Origin: an uncultured Armatimonadota bacterium
GTDB lineage: Bacteria; Armatimonadota; Fimbriimonadia; Fimbriimonadales; Fimbriimonadaceae
Direction of reading: 5' to 3'
NCBI GenBank assembly: GCA_946478935.1
Contig: CAMLEL010000044.1
Coordinates: forward strand, 1 to 10,185
Length of the DNA stretch: 10,185 bases
Below, one piece after another: positions 2,917-10,155 of this stretch (its first letter is position 1; every line of letters starts with the position of its first letter). Made by a program: the position numbers and the translations under genes. Under the pieces are notes generated by a model. The model ran no database searches. It was given only the letters and a program-made list of their open reading frames with translations, and was not told where the DNA came from.

Positions 2917-3438
2917 TTAGTGGCCCTCAGTGTGGAAATTGTTCCCACGACTTTGGGAAGCGGCAGGTTGATTTAGGACTCTCAACCCGGCCGGCAGAAT
3001 CAACGCAAAGTCAACCAAGAACACCATCCCGCACGCCACAAGGAACTGCGCCAGGTGAAGCTTGGCCAATCCGATCAAAGAAACCAACAAGGTCAGTTCG
3101 CCAATGGCCAAACATATCGCCGTGGCTCGCAAGAGGTCTCGTGGATTGGTGACTACAGATGGGTGAAGCTTGGCCCGAGCGTAGACCATGCAGCCGATAA
3201 CACCGATGGCCGCGATGGATTGAAAGGCCTGCCGCATGGCATCGAGCCTCTTGGCGGCATCCAGTCCAAGGTCATTTCCGCTCGACCCGATGAGAATCCC
3301 AAACGCGGCGACCAAAGCTTGGAAAAGTAGAAAGGCGCCGAATAGTTGGAACCAGGCCGTGCGGACAGTGCGGGGCTTCAAGGATCCCGTCAGTGTACCG
3401 GCACCTGGTTCCGGTTTTTTTTCGCTTTCCCCTTGCAT
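2917..3438 (-). CDS. Small four-helix membrane protein of unknown function
   Basis: The 173-residue product is not recognised as any named family. A polar, Pro/Glu/Lys-rich N-terminus (about 1-27) is followed by four hydrophobic segments at about 29-50, 72-88, 105-125 and 129-151, and a short polar tail ending in His. A positive stretch (KPRTVRT) precedes the first helix. An inner-membrane protein with both ends cytoplasmic is therefore likely. The ATG at 3438 is preferred. A TTG at 3468 would extend the product by 10 basic residues but starts inside the inverted repeat at 3457-3480. The ribosome binding site is weak (GGCCGG). The gene is divergent from the VOC operon and shares the intergenic operator, so it might belong to the same regulon, but this is inference. 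A terminator lies about 60 bases after the stop. Confidence 0.75.
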   Translation of the reverse strand: MQGESEKKPEPGAGTLTGSLKPRTVRTAWFQLFGAFLLFQALVAAFGILIGSSGNDLGLDAAKRLDAMRQAFQSIAAIGVIGCMVYARAKLHPSVVTNPRDLLRATAICLAIGELTLLVSLIGLAKLHLAQFLVACGMVFLVDFALILPAGLRVLNQPAASQSRGNNFHTEGH

Positions 3439-3461
3439 CCGGCCACGTTTGATGATATACT
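3433..3461 (+). promoter_or_regulatory. Sigma-70-like promoter of the VOC/DinB/SRPBCC operon
   Basis: A -35-like TTGCAT (3433-3438) and a -10 TATACT (3456-3461) are separated by 17 bases. The second half of the -10 element lies inside the inverted repeat at 3457-3480. Transcription would begin near 3468, giving an untranslated leader of about 190 bases before the VOC start codon. The same layout recurs at 7465-7493. Confidence 0.6.
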
Positions 3462-3480
3462 TAACCAAACAGTTAAGTAT
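3457..3480. promoter_or_regulatory. Operator 1: perfect inverted repeat, probable ArsR-type binding site
   Basis: ATACTTAAC (3457-3465) and GTTAAGTAT (3472-3480) are perfect 9-base arms around the spacer CAAACA. A palindrome of this size, overlapping the -10 box and the predicted start of transcription, is what a dimeric winged-helix repressor would bind to block RNA polymerase. Near-copies occupy the same position relative to the -10 box upstream of the DUF899 gene (7489-7512) and arsR (8868-8891). This points to the ArsR-family protein at 8880-9227 as the cognate regulator. Confidence 0.7.
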
Positions 3481-3555
3481 TGTTTGCGAGACAGGTTCTG
3501 GAGCTTTGGCTAGTTGAGATCGCTTTGGCGCATCCAGTCAAAGCCCGATGGAACT

Positions 3556-3657
3556 ACGATGGAGAGTCGGTTTTTTTGGTTCTGGACCCGAACTTTGGAT
3601 CGCTTGGAAGCTTATCTTTGCGAAAGCATAATAAAGGATCGACAATTGGAGGAAAGA
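3556..3657 (+). pseudogene. Possible remnant of an ArsR-family regulator C-terminus
   Basis: In the long leader between operator 1 and the VOC gene, the frame at 3556-3657 reads MESRFFWFW followed by TRTLDRLEAYL. The segment FW-x3-LDRLEAYL (3580-3618) matches the C-terminal helix of the intact ArsR protein here (FW-x3-LDRLGEYL, residues 93-105), a segment typical of ArsR proteins paired with SRPBCC genes. The frame is closed by TAG at 3511, and no DNA-binding domain is recognisable between the operator and this tail. The simplest reading is that an autoregulated arsR once headed this operon and lost its N-terminal two thirds by deletion, leaving the operator and a stub. The match is short, so chance similarity is possible. 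Confidence 0.45.
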
Positions 3658-3660
3658 AAA

Positions 3661-4086
3661 ATGCCAGCACTAAACCCCTACCTGAACTTCAACGGCAATT
3701 GTATGGAGGCATTCGAACACTACAAGGGCGTCTTCGGTGGAGACTTCGCATTTGTTATGCGCTTCAGCGATGTCCCGCCGGAAATGAACATGGATCCGGC
3801 CGAGGCTAACAAGGTCATGCACGTGTCGCTCCCAGTTGGCGGCTCAATTCTCATGGGCAGTGACAGTCCGGAGCAATATGGCAGCGTCAATTTTGGAAAC
3901 AACGTCCATATCTCGGTTGGAGCCGATAGCGAAGCGGAAGCGGATCGTATCTTCGCAGGATTGTCAGGCGGTGGTGACGTCGTGATGCCGATGGAAAAGG
4001 CCTTTTGGGGTGACTACTTTGGCATGTGTACGGACAAGTTTGGCGTCAAGTGGATGATCAGCTACGCGTACGGACCGGGTAAGTGA
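3661..4086 (+). CDS. VOC family protein, PhnB-like (glyoxalase/bleomycin-resistance fold)
   Basis: The 141-residue product has the form of PhnB-type vicinal-oxygen-chelate proteins. It starts with LNPYLNFNGNCMEAFEHYKGVFGG (about 4-27), has a central strand KVMHVSLPVGG, and ends with the family signature FWGDYFGMCTDKFGVKW at 115-131. Members of this group are often annotated as 3-demethylubiquinone methyltransferase-like, but most have no proven activity; a small-molecule-binding or detoxifying role is typical. The ATG at 3661 is chosen because GGAGG (3648-3652) lies 8 bases upstream and the conserved fold begins there. The frame is open upstream to 3514, but that part resembles an ArsR tail, not VOC sequence. 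It is the first intact gene of a five-gene operon, and its TGA overlaps the next start as TGATG. Confidence 0.88.
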   Translation: MPALNPYLNFNGNCMEAFEHYKGVFGGDFAFVMRFSDVPPEMNMDPAEANKVMHVSLPVGGSILMGSDSPEQYGSVNFGNNVHISVGADSEAEADRIFAGLSGGGDVVMPMEKAFWGDYFGMCTDKFGVKWMISYAYGPGK

Positions 4087-4592
4087 TGGCCATTACTTCT
4101 CATCCAATCCCCATCGTGGAGAAAACCTGCGCCGACTTTGTCAATGCGGTTCAGGGTCTAAAGCACGCATTGGCGACGACGCCGGACGACCGCGTGAACT
4201 GGTCTCCGTCGGATTCGGCCCGGTCTCCGCTGCAAGTGGTCGCGCACGCGGCGCTTCGGGTTCGAAATATGTTTGAAAACATGATCGGACAGCCCTATGC
4301 AGTGAAAACGCCTGATGAAGCGGAGAAGCTATTCCGAGCTGAGGAAAAGACCTTTACTACCCGTGAACAGGTGTTGGAAGTACTGGATCGGAACTGCAAG
4401 GAGTTTCTGGATTGGGCAGCCGGTCTGAATGAAGCGGACATGGACCGAATACTGGTGATGCCGTTTGGGATGCCGTCGATGCCTCTTTCGATCGTCATCA
4501 CCTTCATGCCGATCCACTTGATGTGGCACACGGCGCAGCTCACCTACATTCAGACCATTTACGGCGACCACGATTGGCATCTCGGGAGTTGA
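4086..4592 (+). CDS. DinB-like protein (first of three DinB domains)
   Basis: The 168-residue product fits the DinB/YfiT-like four-helix-bundle superfamily, which often carries a three-histidine metal site. Candidate ligands are His54 (VVAHAAL), His144 and His148 (IHLMWHTAQ), in the spacing seen in the paralogues at 8284 and in the fusion at 9220. The segment NWSPSDSARSPLQVVAH matches NWVPSESARSALQMVVH in the 8284 protein. Some superfamily members are thiol-dependent transferases (bacillithiol or mycothiol S-transferases, maleylpyruvate isomerase), but the substrate cannot be read from the sequence. The ATG at 4086 overlaps the VOC stop (TGATG); an in-frame GTG at 4083 would add only one residue. 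The gene is separated from the next by one base. Confidence 0.85.
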   Translation: MAITSHPIPIVEKTCADFVNAVQGLKHALATTPDDRVNWSPSDSARSPLQVVAHAALRVRNMFENMIGQPYAVKTPDEAEKLFRAEEKTFTTREQVLEVLDRNCKEFLDWAAGLNEADMDRILVMPFGMPSMPLSIVITFMPIHLMWHTAQLTYIQTIYGDHDWHLGS

Positions 4593-4593
4593 A

Positions 4594-5523
4594 ATGAGCC
4601 TTTCTCAATCAGCGAACTGGGAAATCATTCTGGACCGCGCGTATGCCGCTCCGAAGTCACTGGTCTGGCGGGCTTGGACCGACCCTGAAATGCTTGGCAA
4701 ATGGCTTTGCCCAAAGGATTTTGTGGTCACGAACGTCGAGGTGGACTTGAAAATTGGTGGCAAGTGGCGGTCGGGAATGCGATCACCGGAAGGGATCGAC
4801 TATTCCATGGGCGGTGTGTACAAGACCCTTGATGCCCCAAACCGCCTCGTGTTCACTCACGCTTGGGAGGATGATCTGGCGTCGGGACATATTCCCGGCC
4901 ACGAATCCCTGATCGAAATCGACCTAAACGAATTCGAAGGTATGACCCGGATGACATTTCGAGTGACCGGACTAACTTCAGAAGAGTCGCGAGATGGCCA
5001 GAAGATCGGATGGAGCCAAGCGTTCGAGAACCAGGGGCGAGCGTTGGCGCTGGAAAGTCCGAATGGCGAGCTGGAATCGCGATCGCTGGCGTTCACTCGT
5101 CTCTATCCGCACTCAAGGAAGCGAGTTTGGAAAGCTTGGACGGACCCCGATGCCCTGACCCAGTGGTGGGGGCCGAATGGTTTTACGACGACGACCTATG
5201 AAATGGACGTTTGCTCAGGTGGACGATGGCGGTTCACCATGCACGGGCCGGATGGCCGCGATTACAAGAATCTGGTCTCGTACGTAGCGGTTGATGAACC
5301 AACGTTCTTGGCCTATCAGCACTCTGATGACGATGAGGGCGATATTCACTTCTTTGCTGAGGTTCATTTAACCAAAGAAGACATGAACACTCGCTTAGAT
5401 TTCCGAATGACTTTCGAGTCGATTGAAATTTTGCGCCGAGTCGTGGAAGAATTTGGAGCCGAAGAAGGGGCAAATCAGACACTCACCAGGCTCGCTGACT
5501 ATCTTAAGGAGAATAATTCGTGA
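4594..5523 (+). CDS. Tandem SRPBCC (AHSA1-like) domain protein
   Basis: The 309-residue product contains two copies of the roughly 150-residue AHSA1/START-like helix-grip domain, which binds hydrophobic ligands or proteins. Copy 1 spans about 8-152 (SLVWRAWTDPEMLGKWLCP at 22-40, DLKIGGKW at 51-58, RLVFTHAWED at 84-93). Copy 2 spans about 162-305 (RVWKAWTDPDALTQWWGP at 177-194, DVCSGGRWRF at 205-214). Most family members have a single domain, so this looks like a tandem duplication or fusion of two diverged paralogues joined by a short linker (PNGELESR). Copy 1 has WLCP where copy 2 has the common WWGP. Copy 1 is closer to the SRPBCC half of the 9220 fusion (WFCP). The ATG follows the DinB stop by one base with GGGAG at 4584-4588. 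The next gene starts inside its stop codon. Confidence 0.87.
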   Translation: MSLSQSANWEIILDRAYAAPKSLVWRAWTDPEMLGKWLCPKDFVVTNVEVDLKIGGKWRSGMRSPEGIDYSMGGVYKTLDAPNRLVFTHAWEDDLASGHIPGHESLIEIDLNEFEGMTRMTFRVTGLTSEESRDGQKIGWSQAFENQGRALALESPNGELESRSLAFTRLYPHSRKRVWKAWTDPDALTQWWGPNGFTTTTYEMDVCSGGRWRFTMHGPDGRDYKNLVSYVAVDEPTFLAYQHSDDDEGDIHFFAEVHLTKEDMNTRLDFRMTFESIEILRRVVEEFGAEEGANQTLTRLADYLKENNS

Positions 5524-6173
5524 AGCTAACGATCGCGCTATTGCCGGCAATTCTTGCGGCAAGTGCTGGCTACCTTGTTGTGCACCCCGGTGTTGCATTT
5601 GCCGAACCAAGGTTCCGGGCCGAAACACCATTTGCACAAGGCGCCTCATTCACCATCGATCCCAATCATTCGGGAGTCTATTTTGAGATCGAGCACCTGG
5701 AGTTGTCGAAGGTAACCGGGCGACTCAATAAGTTCACTGGAAAGATCACCGAACATGGAGCGGATCTAACCAAGGCCAAGGTGGAGTTTTCGGCGGAGGC
5801 AGCGTCGATCGATACTGCAATCCCAGTTCGGGACGACCATCTTCGAAAGGCCGACTTCTTTGATGTGGAGAAGCACCCCAAGATTACGTTCAAAAGCACC
5901 AGGGTGGAGAAGAAGGGTCGGGGCTATGTGGTGACCGGGGACCTCACCATCAAGGGCAAGTCCAAAAGTGTTGCCATCCCATTCCGGCACCTCGGTCCGA
6001 AGACCCTGAACTTTGGTGAGACGACAACACATATTGGAATCGTTGCCGATCCAATCGTCATCAAGCGAACCGACTTTGGCGTGGGCGATATGACTCGTTT
6101 GCCGGACGGAACCTTGGGCGCGAGCGACGAGGTTGTGATTCGGATTTCATTCGAAGCTATTCGTGACAAATGA
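5520..6173 (+). CDS. Secreted YceI-like lipocalin-fold protein
   Basis: The 217-residue product has an N-terminal signal peptide (hydrophobic core at about 4-22, probable cleavage after AFA at 26-28) followed by a YceI domain from about 42 to 214. Family hallmarks are FTIDPNHSGVYFEIEHL at 44-60, TGRLNKFTGKI, the segment DDHLRKADFFDVEKHPKITFKS at about 105-126, the GDLTIKG turn at 140-146, and a late DFGVG. YceI proteins bind polyisoprenoid or other amphiphilic ligands in a beta-barrel outside the cytoplasm. The start is GTG at 5520, overlapping the previous stop as GTGA, with AAGGAG (5506-5511) 8 bases upstream. An exported lipid-binding protein in an operon with cytoplasmic SRPBCC and DinB proteins suggests handling of a hydrophobic compound across compartments (inference). 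Confidence 0.9.
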   Translation: MKLTIALLPAILAASAGYLVVHPGVAFAEPRFRAETPFAQGASFTIDPNHSGVYFEIEHLELSKVTGRLNKFTGKITEHGADLTKAKVEFSAEAASIDTAIPVRDDHLRKADFFDVEKHPKITFKSTRVEKKGRGYVVTGDLTIKGKSKSVAIPFRHLGPKTLNFGETTTHIGIVADPIVIKRTDFGVGDMTRLPDGTLGASDEVVIRISFEAIRDK

Positions 6174-6192
6174 CAGATAATAGGAGGTCAGT

Positions 6193-6687
6193 ATGAAATC
6201 AATTTTCGTCACAGCAATGTTCATCTTCAGCGTGGTGGCTGCTCATGCGGGCACGCTGAAAGCTCATTTGTCGGCCGAAATCCCGAAGATCACCAAAGCC
6301 ATGAAGAAGGGGGATATGGCGTCCCTCGAAAAGATCTTCCGATCAGGCATGACGAAGGACTTCGTCTATATTGAGAATGGTCAAAAGCAAGGCATTGACA
6401 CGATGATTTCAAATATGAAGATGGGTTTGGCATCCATGAAAACTCTGACTGTCGTGCGAGCAAAGACCCTTTCGGTTACCGAAAAAGGCAATAGTGGAGT
6501 CGCAACGACGGAGCACTTCATGGAGGGCATCATGGTTGGCCCGGATAACAAAGAGCACAAAATGGGGTTCTCTGGCGTCAGCACCGACACGTACGTCAAG
6601 GTCAAGGGATCATGGAAGATGTCGAAGATGGCTTGGAAGAACCAGAAAATGCTCATGGACGGTAAGCCGATGGCCGCTGGCGGCTAG
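6193..6687 (+). CDS. Secreted Met/Lys-rich protein, probably NTF2-like (SnoaL/DUF4440 type)
   Basis: The 164-residue product has a signal peptide (about 1-19, ending AHA-G) and then a region arranged like the small alpha+beta NTF2-like fold. Helices include a segment at about 40-50 resembling the D-x-x-x-L-x-x-x-F start of DUF4440/SnoaL proteins. Strands follow (FVYIENG, ATTEHFMEGIM), and the end TYVKVKGSWKMSKMAWK at about 133-149 looks like the closing strands of that fold. Methionine is unusually common (17 of 164), and the tail (MAWKNQKMLMDGKPM) is especially rich. A strong AGGAGGT (6182-6188) sits 4 bases before the ATG. It follows yceI by 19 bases and is the last gene before the terminator. 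Secretion is well supported; the fold is probable; the function is unknown. Confidence 0.75.
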   Translation: MKSIFVTAMFIFSVVAAHAGTLKAHLSAEIPKITKAMKKGDMASLEKIFRSGMTKDFVYIENGQKQGIDTMISNMKMGLASMKTLTVVRAKTLSVTEKGNSGVATTEHFMEGIMVGPDNKEHKMGFSGVSTDTYVKVKGSWKMSKMAWKNQKMLMDGKPMAAGG

Positions 6688-6710
6688 TCAACGGTCGAAG
6701 ATCAGCATAA

Positions 6711-6733
6711 GGACCGGCGTTGCCGGTCCATTT
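6711..6733 (+). terminator. Rho-independent terminator closing the VOC-DinB-SRPBCC-YceI operon
   Basis: A perfect 8-base stem, GGACCGGC (6711-6718) and GCCGGTCC (6722-6729), encloses the loop GTT. It is followed by an AT-rich stretch (ATTTCATTTAT). It lies 24 bases after the stop of the secreted NTF2-like gene, so it probably ends the five-gene transcript and separates the following reductase gene. Confidence 0.82.
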
Positions 6734-6778
6734 CATTTATATCTGTGTATGCTTGGAGGCATGGACGGCGAACCGACG

Positions 6779-7450
6779 ATGACAAAACTCCGCCTGCAAG
6801 GCAAGAAACCAGAGGCAGGCAACGTTGAAACATTTATCTTCGAAACTGGCGGACTGACCTGGATAGCCGGACAGAACCAGGGTTATGTCATTTCGAGTCT
6901 GGGTCCATCGGAGGATGAGAATCAGCGGTGGTTTACGATCGCTTCCGCTCCTTTTGAGGGCGAAATCCACATCTCCACACGCGTGAGTCAGAGTGGTTTC
7001 AAGCAGGCTCTGAACTCTATGAACCCCGGCGACACGATTGAATGTCACACGCTAGAAGGGGATTTCACGTGGGAGGATGTTGGCGATCCGGTCGTCTTGG
7101 TCGCGGGTGGGATTGGCTCCACGCCGTTCCGAAGCATCCTTCTGCAACGCGAATTCGATGGAAAGCCATTGAACTGCAAGCTGCTTTACTACAATCGAAA
7201 TGAGGAAGTGCCATTTCAAGACGAGTTCGAGGCACTCGCGGCGCAGCATCCCGAATTCAAGCTTCAGATCATCGTTGGAGAGACGATCGATGCAGAGTCG
7301 ATATTGCGGCATGCGCCCGAGGGGCAGTCTCAGACTGTTTTGCTTTCTGGGCCTGAACCCATGGTCGAGGCAGTGGGAACACAACTGAAAGATCGCGGAG
7401 TCCACGTTAAGCAAGACTGGTTCCCCGGATACGACGAAAAGTCGTACTGA
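6779..7450 (+). CDS. FAD-dependent NAD(P)H oxidoreductase of the ferredoxin-NADP reductase type
   Basis: A stand-alone FNR-superfamily flavoprotein that would move electrons between NAD(P)H and an unknown acceptor. With the ATG at 6779 it has 223 residues. The FAD-binding barrel includes LTWIAGQNQGYV at about 26-37 and the FAD motif RWFTIASAP at 50-58. The nucleotide-binding domain has VLVAGGIGSTPFRSIL at 106-121, LLYYNRNEE at 135-143, and LLSGPEPMVEAV at 188-199. It ends with DWFPGY, typical of this subgroup. There is no iron-sulfur or ferredoxin domain. The start is uncertain. ATGs at 6749 and 6761 are also in frame; GGAGG (6755-6759) is too close to 6761 and too far from 6779 to decide. 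It stands alone between a terminator and operator 2, and no inverted repeat of that type precedes it. Confidence 0.85.
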   Translation: MTKLRLQGKKPEAGNVETFIFETGGLTWIAGQNQGYVISSLGPSEDENQRWFTIASAPFEGEIHISTRVSQSGFKQALNSMNPGDTIECHTLEGDFTWEDVGDPVVLVAGGIGSTPFRSILLQREFDGKPLNCKLLYYNRNEEVPFQDEFEALAAQHPEFKLQIIVGETIDAESILRHAPEGQSQTVLLSGPEPMVEAVGTQLKDRGVHVKQDWFPGYDEKSY

Positions 7451-7464
7451 TTTGTAAAGCGGGG

Positions 7465-7493
7465 TTGCACACCAGAGCGACCTCGTGTAAACT
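7465..7493 (+). promoter_or_regulatory. Sigma-70-like promoter of the DUF899-DinB operon
   Basis: TTGCAC (7465-7470) and TAAACT (7488-7493) are spaced by 17 bases, the optimum for a housekeeping promoter. Transcription would start near 7500, giving a short leader before the ATG at 7531. The arrangement nearly copies that at 3433-3461, including the overlap of the operator with the 3' half of the -10 box. Confidence 0.62.
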
Positions 7494-7516
7494 TAACCAA
7501 ACGGTTTAACTTAACC
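7489..7516. promoter_or_regulatory. Operator 2: ArsR-type inverted repeat with an extra half-site
   Basis: AAACTTAAC (7489-7497) and GTTTAACTT (7504-7512) are imperfect arms around CAAACG. Positions 7491-7502 (ACTTAACCAAAC) are identical to operator 1. A third half-site, ACTTAACC at 7509-7516, directly repeats 7491-7498 with an 18-base period, so two overlapping repressor dimers might bind here. The operator overlaps the -10 box and the predicted transcription start. Confidence 0.68.
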
Positions 7517-7530
7517 GAAGGAGAGTTGAA

Positions 7531-8256
7531 ATGCAAGTGGATACTGCTATGCCGCCAGTAGTTGAAGAGTCCGAATGGCGGGACAAACGGGTTGCGCTGC
7601 TTGAACGCGAAAAGGAGCTGACTCGGCATAAGGACCGCGTCAACGCCGAGCGAAAACGTCTGCCCATGGTCAAGGTGGACAAGGAGTACCAATTCGACAC
7701 GCTTGAGGGCAAGAAGAGCCTACGCGACTTGTTTGGAGTCAAGCGCCAGCTCATCATCTACCACTTCATGTTCGATCCGGCTTGGGATGAAGGATGTCCG
7801 GGATGTACGGGGTACATCGATTCGCTGGGCGACCTGTCTCTACTCGATGAGCGAGATACGGCATTTGTGATTGTATCGAGGGCTCCGCTTGACAAAATCG
7901 AGGCTTACCGCAAAAAGCACGGATGGGATCGAACGTACGTGTCATCTTTCGGCAGTGACTTCAACTACGACTTTCATGCCACGCTGGATGAGAAGGTCAA
8001 GCCGATCGAATACAACTTCCTGTCAAAGGAAGAAATCAAAGCTCGAGGCTTGAGTTACCTGGTGGAGGGGGAGCAGCACGGCACGAGCGTGTTCTTTCGA
8101 AACGGGGATGACGTCTATCACACGTACTCAAACTACGCTCGAGGGACAGAAGGCACTTCCGATGCCTATGGCCTTCTCGATCTCACGCCTTATGGTCGCC
8201 AGGAGGACTTCGAAGAAGCTCCAGCCGGGTGGCCGCAAAGGGCTACCTACTCATAG
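7531..8256 (+). CDS. DUF899 family thioredoxin-fold protein (predicted dithiol-disulfide oxidoreductase)
   Basis: The 241-residue product matches the DUF899 family, a thioredoxin-like group thought to act in cytoplasmic thiol-disulfide chemistry. An N-terminal helical, charged section (about 10-45) leads to the core. There, [19 protein letters not shown] at 77-95 carries the candidate redox motif CPGC (Cys89 and Cys92), in the position expected for this family. Later family features include [26 protein letters not shown] and the C-terminal [13 protein letters not shown] and [11 protein letters not shown]. No signal peptide is present. AAGGAG (7518-7523) lies 7 bases before the ATG. The gene sits just downstream of operator 2 and is followed 27 bases later by a DinB-like gene, so it probably responds to the ArsR repressor encoded nearby. 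The physiological substrate is unknown. Confidence 0.9.
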
Positions 8257-8283
8257 TCGGATGCAATTAGGAGGAAACTAAAA

Positions 8284-8790
8284 ATGGATACAGCAACCCG
8301 CCCAGACCTTGGAACATTCAAGGCAACGGCTCAAAAAGATGCCCAAGAGGGATGTGACTACCTACTCAAAACTTTTTCGTTCGTCAAAGACGAGAATCTC
8401 AACTGGGTGCCCAGCGAGTCGGCACGATCCGCCCTGCAAATGGTTGTGCACTGTGCCAACGCAAACCATGCGTTTGCGTCAATCGTTAGAGGTGATGAAG
8501 TCAACCTTCCCCCGGAAGCGCTGGCCGATTTTCGCAAGTTTCAGCGGGACATGGAGGCGGCGGTAACCGACCGGGATACCGCGGTTCAAATGCTCAACGA
8601 CACAACCCGTGAAGTAATCGATGCCATTGGCACCGTTGATGAAGAGGCGTTCGCTACTTCTCCAAGCAGCCCGTTTGGTCCGATGCCGATGGCATTTTGG
8701 ATGACGTTGTCCGGTATGCACATGAAGGCGCATGCCTGCCAGATCGATTATCTGCAAACGATTTGGGGCGATCTCGAGGACCACTTCTAA
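8284..8790 (+). CDS. DinB-like protein (second of three DinB domains)
   Basis: The 168-residue product has the DinB/YfiT-like helical-bundle pattern, with putative metal ligands His56 (VVHCANA), His146 and His150 (GMHMKAHACQ). Its ending, QIDYLQTIWGDLEDHF, is almost the same as the end of the fusion protein at 9220-10155 (QIDYLQTTWGDLVDHF), and the two share SALxxxVH and RGDE segments. They are therefore closer to each other than to the DinB encoded at 4086. AGGAGG (8269-8274) lies 9 bases before the ATG. The gene is probably co-transcribed with the DUF899 gene from the promoter at 7465-7493. A metal-dependent, thiol-linked transferase is one possibility known in the superfamily, but no substrate can be named from the sequence. 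Confidence 0.86.
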   Translation: MDTATRPDLGTFKATAQKDAQEGCDYLLKTFSFVKDENLNWVPSESARSALQMVVHCANANHAFASIVRGDEVNLPPEALADFRKFQRDMEAAVTDRDTAVQMLNDTTREVIDAIGTVDEEAFATSPSSPFGPMPMAFWMTLSGMHMKAHACQIDYLQTIWGDLEDHF

Positions 8791-8797
8791 GTGAAAT

Positions 8798-8823
8798 GGC
8801 GCCGCTTCGCAAGGGGCGGCGTC
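8798..8823 (+). terminator. Possible hairpin terminator after the DUF899-DinB operon
   Basis: GGCGCCGC (8798-8805) can pair with GCGGCGTC (8816-8823), with one G-U pair, around a 10-base loop, 8 bases after the DinB stop. No clear T run follows, so this may be a weak or factor-assisted terminator, or only a stable mRNA 3' end. Confidence 0.4.
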
Positions 8824-8841
8824 CACTGCCATCTTTCCGTA

Positions 8842-8872
8842 TTGAACAAGTTCTCGTCGAATTTGGTATACT
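8842..8872 (+). promoter_or_regulatory. Promoter of arsR and the SRPBCC-DinB fusion gene
   Basis: A -10 TATACT (8867-8872) is identical to that of operator 1. The best -35 is TTGAAC (8842-8847), with a long spacer of 19 bases that would make the promoter weaker than the other two. Transcription would start at about 8879-8880, at or next to the GTG start codon, predicting a leaderless mRNA. Confidence 0.55.
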
Positions 8873-8891
8873 AAACTAAGTGGTTAAGCTT
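8868..8891. promoter_or_regulatory. Operator 3: autoregulatory ArsR-type inverted repeat
   Basis: ATACTAAAC (8868-8876) and GTTAAGCTT (8883-8891) are imperfect arms around TAAGTG. The AAC-N6-GTT core and the position relative to the -10 box are the same as in operators 1 and 2. The site covers the 3' part of the -10 box, the predicted start of transcription and the first four codons of arsR, a natural design for autorepression. It is the most degenerate of the three, which fits weaker self-repression. Confidence 0.6.
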
Positions 8892-9227
8892 GCTTCTCCT
8901 AATTTAGATCGAGTTTTTTATGCCCTGTCTGATTCGACCCGTCGAGATATCTTGGGCCGAGTTTCCCAGGGTCCTGTCGCAGTGACATCCCTGGCTCAAA
9001 GATATGAGATGAGTCTTCCTGCGGTCGTCAAGCACTTGGGAGTTCTAGAAGCCTGTGGACTGGTCACGACGGATAAGGTCGGCAGGGTTCGAACCTGCAG
9101 GTTGGACGCCACACCATTAAAGGCTGCCGATGATTGGATCGAGACCTACCGCGTATTCTGGGAAGGACAGTTGGACCGCCTCGGTGAGTACCTGGATCGA
9201 CTCCAAAAGGAGGGTGAGGATGAGTAG
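8880..9227 (+). CDS. ArsR/SmtB-family winged-helix transcriptional repressor
   Basis: The 115-residue product is a typical small ArsR-family repressor of the type paired with SRPBCC genes. The N-terminal helix VFYALSDSTRRDILGRV spans 12-28. The helix-turn-helix spans about 36-60 (SLAQRYEMSLPAVVKHLGVLEACG), the wing about 61-74, and the C-terminal dimerisation helix about 84-110 (DWIETYRVFWEGQLDRLGEYL). It has no ELCVCD-like or other cysteine metal site, so a non-metal signal is more likely. The start is fixed at GTG 8880 because TAA immediately precedes it in frame (8877-8879). No Shine-Dalgarno sequence is present, and the promoter predicts a leaderless transcript. The gene overlaps the following SRPBCC-DinB gene by 8 bases (ATGAGTAG). 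It is the only intact regulator in the window and the best candidate to bind operators 1-3. Confidence 0.93.
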   Translation: MVKLASPNLDRVFYALSDSTRRDILGRVSQGPVAVTSLAQRYEMSLPAVVKHLGVLEACGLVTTDKVGRVRTCRLDATPLKAADDWIETYRVFWEGQLDRLGEYLDRLQKEGEDE

Positions 9228-10155
9228 CGTCCTTGAGGCATTGTCTGTTAGTCGAGTCTATCCTTGCCCACGAGAACTGGTCTTTAAGGCATGGACTGAA
9301 CCCGTCCGCTTGGAGCGATGGTTCTGTCCGAATCCTTCAAACCGGGTGAAAGCCCAGATCGACCTAAAAGTCGGTGGTCACTACCGAATTGCGATGGTCA
9401 ACCCAAGCGGTGAGTCGTGGGTGATCGGTGGGGAATATCGCGAAATCGAACGTCCAGGCAAACTAGTTTTCACCTGGAATTGGGAAGACTCCGAGGAGCC
9501 CACCTCGCTCGTTACAGTTTCCCTCAGTGAGGTGCAGAACGGTACCTTGGTCGAACTGGTACATGACAAGCTTGACTCCAGTGAGTCACAGCAACAACAT
9601 CTGCAAGGTTGGACGTTGACCTTCGAGCGCCTTGCGGCATACCTGATGGATCCTATGGAAACAGCCCTTTTGCCACCGTCCGACCTGCTGGGGGCGGCTG
9701 CCCAAATCAATACGGCGCGCGACCTTGCCCGCATGGCATTGGATCGCTTGCGGCTGACTTTCAGTCATGTTCCAAGCGACAGGGTCCATGAGTCACCCAG
9801 CCCCGATGCCAAGTCGGCGCTCCGGATCCTGGTCCATGCCGGGCTTGCGAACCAGTATTTTGCGGCTGTACTGCGAGGAGATGAGATGCCCCATATGTCA
9901 GCGGAAGAAGTTGTGGCGAACATCGCCGCGCACGAGTCCTCGATCACCGACCGATCGGAGGCCGAAGCCCTCTTGGCCACAAGTTCGAAAGAAGTTCTCG
10001 ATGCGATCGACAGGGTCGACCCTGGTCGGCTGACAACCGACCCCAAGTGCGCATTCGTCCTCCTGCTCGTCGGTCGGCACGCGGATGGGCACGCCTCACA
10101 AATCGATTACTTGCAGACGACCTGGGGAGATTTGGTGGACCACTTCGTCAAGTAG
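9220..10155 (+). CDS. SRPBCC (AHSA1-like) - DinB fusion protein
   Basis: The 311-residue product joins two folds usually encoded separately. Residues about 8-141 form an AHSA1-like SRPBCC domain (ELVFKAWTEPVRLERWFCP at 19-37, DLKVGGHYRI at 48-57, KLVFTWNWED at 81-90, and the C-terminal helix GWTLTFERLAAYL at 130-142). Residues about 155-309 form a DinB-like bundle with putative ligands His206 (LVHAG), His287 and His291 (GRHADGHAS), ending QIDYLQTTWGDLVDHF. The join at 9644-9648 reads TGATG, the usual form of a stop/start overlap. Here the TGA is out of frame, so translation continues through the in-frame ATG at 9646. The ATG at 9220 overlaps the arsR stop and has AAGGAGG (9207-9213) 6 bases upstream. 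Coupling to arsR implies the pair is made together; the product could be a sensor or effector for the repressor's ligand (inference). Confidence 0.88.
   Translation: MSSVLEALSVSRVYPCPRELVFKAWTEPVRLERWFCPNPSNRVKAQIDLKVGGHYRIAMVNPSGESWVIGGEYREIERPGKLVFTWNWEDSEEPTSLVTVSLSEVQNGTLVELVHDKLDSSESQQQHLQGWTLTFERLAAYLMDPMETALLPPSDLLGAAAQINTARDLARMALDRLRLTFSHVPSDRVHESPSPDAKSALRILVHAGLANQYFAAVLRGDEMPHMSAEEVVANIAAHESSITDRSEAEALLATSSKEVLDAIDRVDPGRLTTDPKCAFVLLLVGRHADGHASQIDYLQTTWGDLVDHFVK

What the first reader, a model, noticed from the sequence alone, without database searches (positions are those of the whole stretch)
3433..8891. Three promoters share one operator at the same place in the -10 box: a probable local ArsR regulon
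Inverted repeats at 3457-3480, 7489-7512 and 8868-8891 align without gaps (core AAC-N6-GTT). In all three, the operator begins at the second base of the -10 hexamer (TATACT, TAAACT, TATACT). The first two also share TTGCAT/TTGCAC at 17-base spacing. The third overlaps the start of the only intact regulator in the window. Together they would place at least nine genes (VOC, DinB, SRPBCC x2, YceI, NTF2-like; DUF899, DinB; ArsR, SRPBCC-DinB) under one repressor. ArsR-SRPBCC pairs are well known, but a three-operon regulon of this composition is not one I recognise.
Basis: partly seen in the sequence, partly recalled or inferred. Interest (0 to 1): 0.75.

Follow-up and report, generated by a model that had tools for sequence, protein, structure and literature searches.

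The report
One repressor operator, three neighbouring operons
A small repressor gene and two neighbouring gene clusters, probably from a Fimbriimonas-like bacterium, carry the same DNA switch, which in distant bacteria sits on the repressor's own promoter and start codon, so the three clusters are probably switched on together, perhaps against reactive chemicals.

Summary
The three inverted repeats are real and lie as described. A matrix built only from other organisms' arsR promoters ranks exactly these sites first in the window (31.5, 23.0, 14.1; next 7.6). In 20 of 21 distant relatives (42-56% identity) the same 24-bp palindrome lies at the ArsR gene, and in 19 of those 20 an ATG inside it is in frame with ArsR. 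So "the same place in the -10" is the layout of a widespread ArsR subfamily: the operator runs from the -10 to the start codon, probably of a leaderless mRNA. Site 3 has it (GTG 8880). Sites 1 and 2 lack the start codon (ACA, ACG), and behind site 1 lies a probable internally deleted arsR remnant in frame with the operator. Best reading: two ArsR-less operons plus the autoregulated one form a local nine-gene regulon. Relatives' operons hold GST, DUF899 or DinB partners, suggesting thiol-based detoxification. Limits: the window's genome is not held, no close relative's DNA was obtained, site 2 is weak, another ArsR could bind sites 1 and 2, and no binding is shown. How rare three-operon regulons are could not be measured fairly.

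The parts
3433..3461 (+). promoter 1: TTGCAT, 17 bases, TATACT
   Evidence: sequence; not listed by the generic promoter scan
3457..3480 (+). operator site 1, 9 of 9 arm pairs; start-codon place reads ACA
   Evidence: (score 31.5)
3469..3660 (+). probable internally deleted arsR remnant in frame with operator 1 (VKY at 3472-3480, TAG at 3511-3513, C-terminus-like FFWFWTRTLDRLEAYL at 3571-3618)
3661..4086 (+). operon 1: VOC protein (glyoxalase superfamily, YjdN/PhnB-like)
4086..4592 (+). operon 1: DinB_2 protein with HLMWH
4594..5523 (+). operon 1: double AHSA1/SRPBCC protein, one ORF
5520..6173 (+). operon 1: YceI-like protein
6193..6687 (+). operon 1: SnoaL/DUF4440 (NTF2-like) protein
6711..6729 (+). 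terminator-like hairpin closing operon 1
   Evidence: 11 terminator-like sites found, mean 7.5 in shuffles
7465..7493 (+). promoter 2: TTGCAC, 17 bases, TAAACT
   Evidence: sequence; not listed by the generic promoter scan
7489..7512 (+). operator site 2 (weakest); start-codon place reads ACG, then GTT TAA
   Evidence: score 14.1
7531..8256 (+). operon 2: DUF899 protein with CPGC
8284..8790 (+). operon 2: DinB_2 protein with HMKAH
8867..8872 (+). -10 of promoter 3, TATACT
8868..8891 (+). operator site 3, contains the GTG start codon of ArsR
   Evidence: score 23.0
8880..9227 (+). ArsR-family repressor (HTH_20), the proposed regulator
9220..10155 (+). operon 3: SRPBCC-DinB fusion protein, DinB part with HADGH

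Best explanation
The ArsR protein at 8880-9227 is a winged-helix repressor of a subfamily whose operator, ATACTTAAC-N6-GTTAAGTAT, runs from the -10 box to the start codon. Bound at its own promoter (site 3) it keeps RNA polymerase off and limits itself and SRPBCC-DinB. Two further promoters (sites 1 and 2) carry the operator without the start codon and put VOC, DinB, double SRPBCC, YceI, SnoaL (operon 1) and DUF899, DinB (operon 2) under the same repressor. The extra operators most likely descend from arsR-led promoters that kept the operator and lost the regulator; behind site 1 an arsR remnant is still visible. An unknown signal, perhaps an electrophile or oxidant acting at Cys73, would release all three operons for thiol-based detoxification. 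Shown by computation: the sites, their identity with the subfamily operator, the genes. Inferred: binding by this ArsR, repression, leaderless mRNA, origin, signal.
For: Same palindrome at the ArsR gene in 20 of 21 distant loci; its ATG in frame with ArsR in 19 of 20; a -35 with at least 5 of 6 TTGACA matches 15-18 bases before the -10 place in 15 of 20, against 1.9% of random positions. Matrix from 17 foreign operators: window 31.5, 23.0, 14.1, next 7.6; in 300,901 bases of the relatives' loci only two hits of 9 or more are not at an ArsR start region, one 2.3 kb after an arsR and one before an SRPBCC gene beside an arsR. Motif-first: 8 of 17 strict hits in 297 + 142 genomes begin an ArsR gene in register. 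DUF899 in the cluster in 8 of 21 loci. Site 1 matches the subfamily consensus better than any of the relatives' own sites (31.5 against at most 30.2), which argues that it is kept by selection. Remnant: 0 of 1984 scored shuffles as high with the close-relative profile, 2 of 1983 with the wide one. Near-invariant recognition helix in 120 homologues.
Against: No genome of the window is held, so regulon size and other ArsR paralogues are unknown; a Chloroflexi relative holds 10 matches to the ArsR alignment. Site 2 is below all own sites of the relatives. Promoters 1 and 2 have poor -35 boxes and a promoter-like site lies downstream of operator 1. The motif is not over-represented in other genomes compared with the reversed pattern: 13 against 12 places in 16 genomes, 10 against 42 in 297, 7 against 5 in 142. 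The remnant match is short (16-17 residues, 7.5-8.2 bits).
Confidence: 0.68

Rival explanations
1. Sites 1 and 2 belong to another ArsR of the same subfamily encoded elsewhere in the genome, so the three operons share an operator type but not one repressor.
For: Paralogues of this family are common: 19 of 21 Chloroflexi-phylum genomes match the ArsR alignment and one has 10 matches. The recognition helix is nearly invariant, so paralogues could share operators. The probable arsR remnant at site 1 shows that more than one arsR existed here.
Against: The only intact ArsR of the window lies next to operon 2, and related operons combine ArsR, SRPBCC and DUF899 in one cluster.
Confidence: 0.17
2. 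Sites 1 and 2 are fossils: relics of lost arsR-led promoters that no longer bind a repressor in the cell.
For: Start codons lost at both, probable arsR remnant at site 1, site 2 degenerate.
Against: Site 1 has 9 of 9 arm pairs and the highest score of all, better than the live site 3; an abandoned site would be expected to decay.
Confidence: 0.1
3. The resemblance of the sites is chance among AT-rich promoter stretches.
For: Palindromy of sites 2 and 3 taken alone is ordinary and the generic promoter scan shows no excess.
Against: 0.14 pattern matches expected, 6 found; a matrix from other organisms ranks exactly these three first, and the highest of 40 shuffled windows scores 11.0 with the one-sided matrix against 14.1 for site 2.
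Confidence: 0.03

Closest known systems
ArsR-AHSA1/SRPBCC operons (noted for example in Frankia, PMC4531530, one passage seen)
   Same: ArsR gene directly followed by an AHSA1/SRPBCC gene; [quoted passage not shown]
   Different: Here two further operons carry the ArsR operator, and SRPBCC is fused to DinB
Rv2034 autorepressor and its Rv2034-Rv2036 operon (PMC3338718, passages seen)
   Same: ArsR autorepressor, DNase I footprint from -30 to +3 on the coding strand, operon with a polyketide_cyc2 (SRPBCC-type) gene, further targets proposed
   Different: Its operator is CCGTAAGT-N4-ACTTACGG, not ACTTAACC-N4-GGTTAAGT; reported further targets include phoP and dosR, not neighbouring detoxification operons. 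That Rv2036 is a DinB protein is recalled, from no call
Metal-sensing ArsR/SmtB repressors
   Same: Fold family (HTH_5, HTH_20, NCBIfam NF033788 over cut-off) and an operator on the promoter
   Different: Only Cys59 and Cys73, no CxC motif and no His in the last helix (sequence); no metal transporter in the nine genes
SdpR-type autorepressors (NF033789)
   Same: Short ArsR-fold protein, second best NCBIfam match
   Different: 48.6 bits, under the curated cut-off of 100

Membership tests
ArsR-fold repressor family | winged-helix HTH domain of the family over curated cut-offs | tested here: met
   PF12840 33.6 (cut-off 27), PF01022 31.7 (22), NF033788 65.6 (55); solved relative 3f6o at 2.2e-24
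ArsR subfamily with operator over -10 box and start codon | palindrome ATACTTAAC-N6-GTTAAGTAT with the start codon at columns 13-15 | tested here: met
   site 3 with GTG 8880; relatives 20 of 21 with the palindrome, 19 of 20 in frame
ArsR subfamily with operator over -10 box and start codon | SRPBCC gene directly downstream | tested here: met
   9220-10155; in relatives directly downstream in 17 of 21 loci; two of the others end within 0.5 kb
metal-sensing ArsR/SmtB | metal-binding Cys/His motif (CxC in helix 3, or His/Asp pairs in the last helix) | tested here: not met
   by inspection of the 115-aa sequence; the motifs themselves are recalled
SdpR family (NF033789) | score over curated cut-off 100 | tested here: not met
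   48.6 bits
Rv2034-type operator | CCGTAAGT-N4-ACTTACGG | tested here: not met
   the three sites read against the published motif
one regulon under this ArsR | binding of all three sites by the 8880-9227 protein and release in its absence | not testable with these tools
   needs protein and strain
one regulon under this ArsR | genome-wide sites confined to this gene set | not testable with these tools
   no genome held

The most novel reading that the evidence does not exclude
A regulon caught in the making: neighbouring arsR-led operons, each with an operator that doubles as the regulator's start codon, lost all regulators but one; the orphan operators were kept, lost their start codons and were taken over by the survivor, giving a nine-gene thiol-based detoxification regulon in which DinB enzymes stand where glutathione transferases stand in Proteobacteria.
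Probability: 0.3. Interest if true: 0.62.

Novelty: new variant of a known kind. Interest (0 to 1): 0.42.

Why it matters
It ties a widespread, poorly understood ArsR-SRPBCC-DUF899-DinB gene family to a defined operator that can be searched for in other genomes. It offers a reason why many of these repressors begin with MVKY or MLNY: their first codons are operator. It is a possible natural case of a local multi-operon regulon that arose by loss of regulators instead of spread of sites. And it suggests one biochemical theme (GST, DinB, DUF899 as thiol enzymes) for genes mostly annotated as unknown.

Tried and rejected
Close relatives' DNA: the one genome-contig scan gave only distant loci; two viral-contig scans gave no relative. 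Relatives from the window's own lineage were seen as proteins only.

Rarity of three-site genomes: I had meant to argue this and dropped it. At those stringencies the window itself would show only site 1 (sites 2 and 3 have 3 mismatches to the first pattern and 2 to the second). The fairer local comparison is the matrix scan of 21 loci: one (L020) has a second, ArsR-less site, none has three; but only 10 of 21 loci have 5 kb on both sides. I lowered interest from a planned 0.45 to 0.42 for this.

Divergent control of the minus-strand ORF 2917-3468 by site 1: possible, a TTG lies in the operator, but no -35 is evident by eye; the ORF read from its later ATG (2917-3438) has no Pfam match; left open. 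Ferredoxin-reductase-like gene 6749-7450: lies behind a terminator-like hairpin and has no site; left out.

Strict hits L066 and L067 were read for an ArsR-less target operon; none was recognised. Nine of 17 strict hits have no ArsR in register and are taken as chance; the downstream genes of the other seven were not examined.

Literature: nine searches. Five returned no paper: ArsR with SRPBCC+DinB+operator, SRPBCC+palindrom, DUF899, 'ArsR family'+SRPBCC, and DinB+glyoxalase+regulon+operon. The library lacks most subscription journals, so this is no proof of novelty. PMC3338718, PMC9416677, PMC8509827 and PMC4531530 were seen in passages; all others as listings only.

Choice of sites: the relatives' 24-mers used were taken's lists by eye. 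For L014, L016, L018 and L019 the ATG-bearing palindrome was not the first by palindromy, and for L020 it tied for first; L017 had none at arsR. The first matrix used 19 sites (not L016), the second 17 (not L005, L016, L018). The matrices' own training sites match by construction. Of 69 ORFs behind ArsR genes I sent 20 to Pfam, chosen by hand, from 13 loci.
Full report
What was checked. The pattern CTWAACN6GTTWA with at most one mismatch finds only these three palindromic sites (six matches on two strands) against 0.14 expected. By palindromy alone only site 1 stands out (9 of 9 arm pairs, unique); sites 2 and 3 (6 of 9) do not. A generic promoter scan shows no excess, does not list promoters 1 and 2, and lists a promoter-like site at 3604-3632 downstream of operator 1. 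So the case needed outside evidence.

Outside evidence. The ArsR protein has 1676 homologues at E up to 1e-3, of which the best 120 were seen. No genome is held for the window, and the genome scan returned 21 distant relatives, 42-56% identical. In 20 of the 21 loci a 24-bp palindrome of the form ATACTTAAC-N6-GTTAAGTAT lies at the ArsR gene. Its left end lies at the -10 place: the hexamer there matches TATAAT at 3-5 of 6, and a -35 with at least 5 of 6 TTGACA matches lies 15-18 bases upstream in 15 of 20, against 1.9% of random positions. An ATG at columns 13-15 is in frame with ArsR in 19 of 20 (the exception, L013, reads MVK and stops). The operator thus spans the -10 box and the start codon, and the transcript would begin at or next to the start codon, that is, be leaderless (inference from the -10 position). 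This offers a reason for N-termini such as MLNY and MVKY: 61 of 96 homologues that reach the first helix motif carry such a stretch before it.

Scoring the window with foreign sites. A symmetric matrix of 17 non-redundant foreign operators, with the six spacer columns left out, gives 31.5, 23.0 and 14.1 for sites 1, 3 and 2; the next window position scores 7.6. In the 300,901 bases of the 21 loci there are 25 hits of 9 or more: 20 own operators (17.7-30.2, most of them training sites), three second sites at the same promoter in L014, L016 and L018, and two others. L020:12241 (18.9) lies about 2.3 kb after the start of an arsR, with an operator and ATG but no arsR, only the short frame MVKYWQVRRDCQLVAA. 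L017:9476 (13.6) stands before the SRPBCC gene beside an arsR that has no operator of its own. With the first, one-sided matrix the highest of 40 shuffled windows is 11.0, against 14.1 for site 2. Site 2 is likely but the weakest.

Motif-first control. ACTWAACCN4GGTTWAGT with one mismatch was run over 297 genomes of the phylum of L001 (Acidobacteriota; 10 genomes, one site each), and ACTTAACCN4GGTTAAGT with one mismatch over 142 genomes of the class of L011 (Alphaproteobacteria; 7 genomes, one site each). Eight of these 17 sites begin an ArsR gene in register (3 of 10 and 5 of 7); without the two centre genomes it is 6 of 15. In the 16 genomes of relatives the second pattern at up to two mismatches has 13 places in 12 genomes, 10 of them at the known ArsR. 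Against: the tool's control, the pattern read backwards, has 12 places in the same 16 genomes, 42 in the 297 and 5 in the 142, so the motif is not over-represented as such; what counts is where it lies. These searches cannot tell how rare a three-site genome is, because the window itself would show only site 1 at these stringencies.

The remnant behind site 1. In site 1 the start-codon place reads ACA, followed in frame by GTT AAG TAT (V K Y), as in live arsR genes. The related proteins P0002 and P0003 seem to show the operator read as protein, LNQVVKY, against LNQTVKY here. The frame meets TAG at 3511. Further on in the same frame comes FFWFWTRTLDRLEAYL (3571-3618), resembling the ArsR C-terminus (RVFWEGQLDRLGEYL), and the frame runs on into the VOC start. 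The stretch 3481-3660 scores 7.5 bits with the close-relative profile, with 0 of 1984 scored shuffles (of 2000) as high; it scores 8.2 bits with the 120-sequence profile, with 2 of 1983 as high, and above all 280 control stretches of the window (best 5.4). I take an internally deleted arsR as probable, not proven. Site 2 has ACG at the same place, then GTT TAA, and only 18 bases to the DUF899 start. Loss of the start codon makes sense if the operator is kept while leaderless initiation there is unwanted (inference).

Genes. Operon 1: VOC, DinB, double-SRPBCC, YceI, SnoaL, with short gaps or overlaps, closed by a hairpin at 6711-6729. Operon 2: DUF899, DinB. Operon 3: ArsR, SRPBCC-DinB. In relatives with the same operator DUF899 lies in 8 of 21 ArsR-SRPBCC clusters (in L002 only 28% identity). 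Of 13 loci whose further genes I examined by 20 hand-picked ORFs, 7 hold a glutathione S-transferase and 2 (both Terriglobia) a DinB protein directly after SRPBCC; others hold an alpha/beta hydrolase (L001) or a RibD C-terminal domain (L014), and L004 nothing recognised. The window's three DinB domains keep HxxxH and DUF899 keeps CPGC (translations); one source labels DUF899 proteins predicted dithiol-disulfide oxidoreductases. A thiol-based answer to reactive chemicals fits all this, with DinB-fold S-transferases in place of glutathione enzymes; this step rests on general knowledge of the families and is inference. Cys73, present in 118 of 120 homologues, is a candidate sensor residue, also inference.

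Taxon. PrmA homologues named by sources as Armatimonadetes 55-13 (68%), Fimbriimonadales (58%) and Fimbriimonadaceae (59%), beside one labelled Chlorobia (67%), suggest that the window lies in or near Fimbriimonadales.

In print. ArsR-AHSA1 potential operons are noted in Frankia (PMC4531530, passage), and the autorepressor Rv2034, whose footprint reaches +3, has a different palindrome (PMC3338718, passages). No paper on this operator or on a regulon of this composition came up in nine searches of an open-access library.

Verdict. The shared place in the -10 box is the subfamily's layout and not a peculiarity of this window; what is peculiar is two regulator-less copies next to the live one, one of them with a probable regulator remnant.

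Noticed in passing
3604-3632: Promoter-like TTGGAA-17-CATAAT between operator 1 and the VOC start; could drive operon 1 past the operator.
   Followed up: no
2917-3468 (-): Divergent ORF of 183 aa without Pfam match (tested from ATG 3438) whose first possible start, TTG 3468, lies inside operator 1 in the subfamily's register (TTG GTT AAG TAT).
   Followed up: partly
6749-7450: Ferredoxin/flavodoxin-reductase-like gene between operons 1 and 2, behind a terminator-like hairpin and without an operator.
   Followed up: partly
L020:12241-12264: A second operator with ATG near an arsR-SRPBCC operon but with no arsR behind it, only MVKYWQVRRDCQLVAA and a stop: another ArsR-less copy.
   Followed up: partly
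L014, L016, L018: 9941-9964 and 9977-10000: Two operators in tandem, 36 bp apart, before the same arsR in Kibdelosporangium and Rhodococcus records.
   Followed up: no
   Followed up: no
135-2826: DnaJ, PrmA and an RsmE-type RNA methyltransferase in a row upstream of the region.
   Followed up: no
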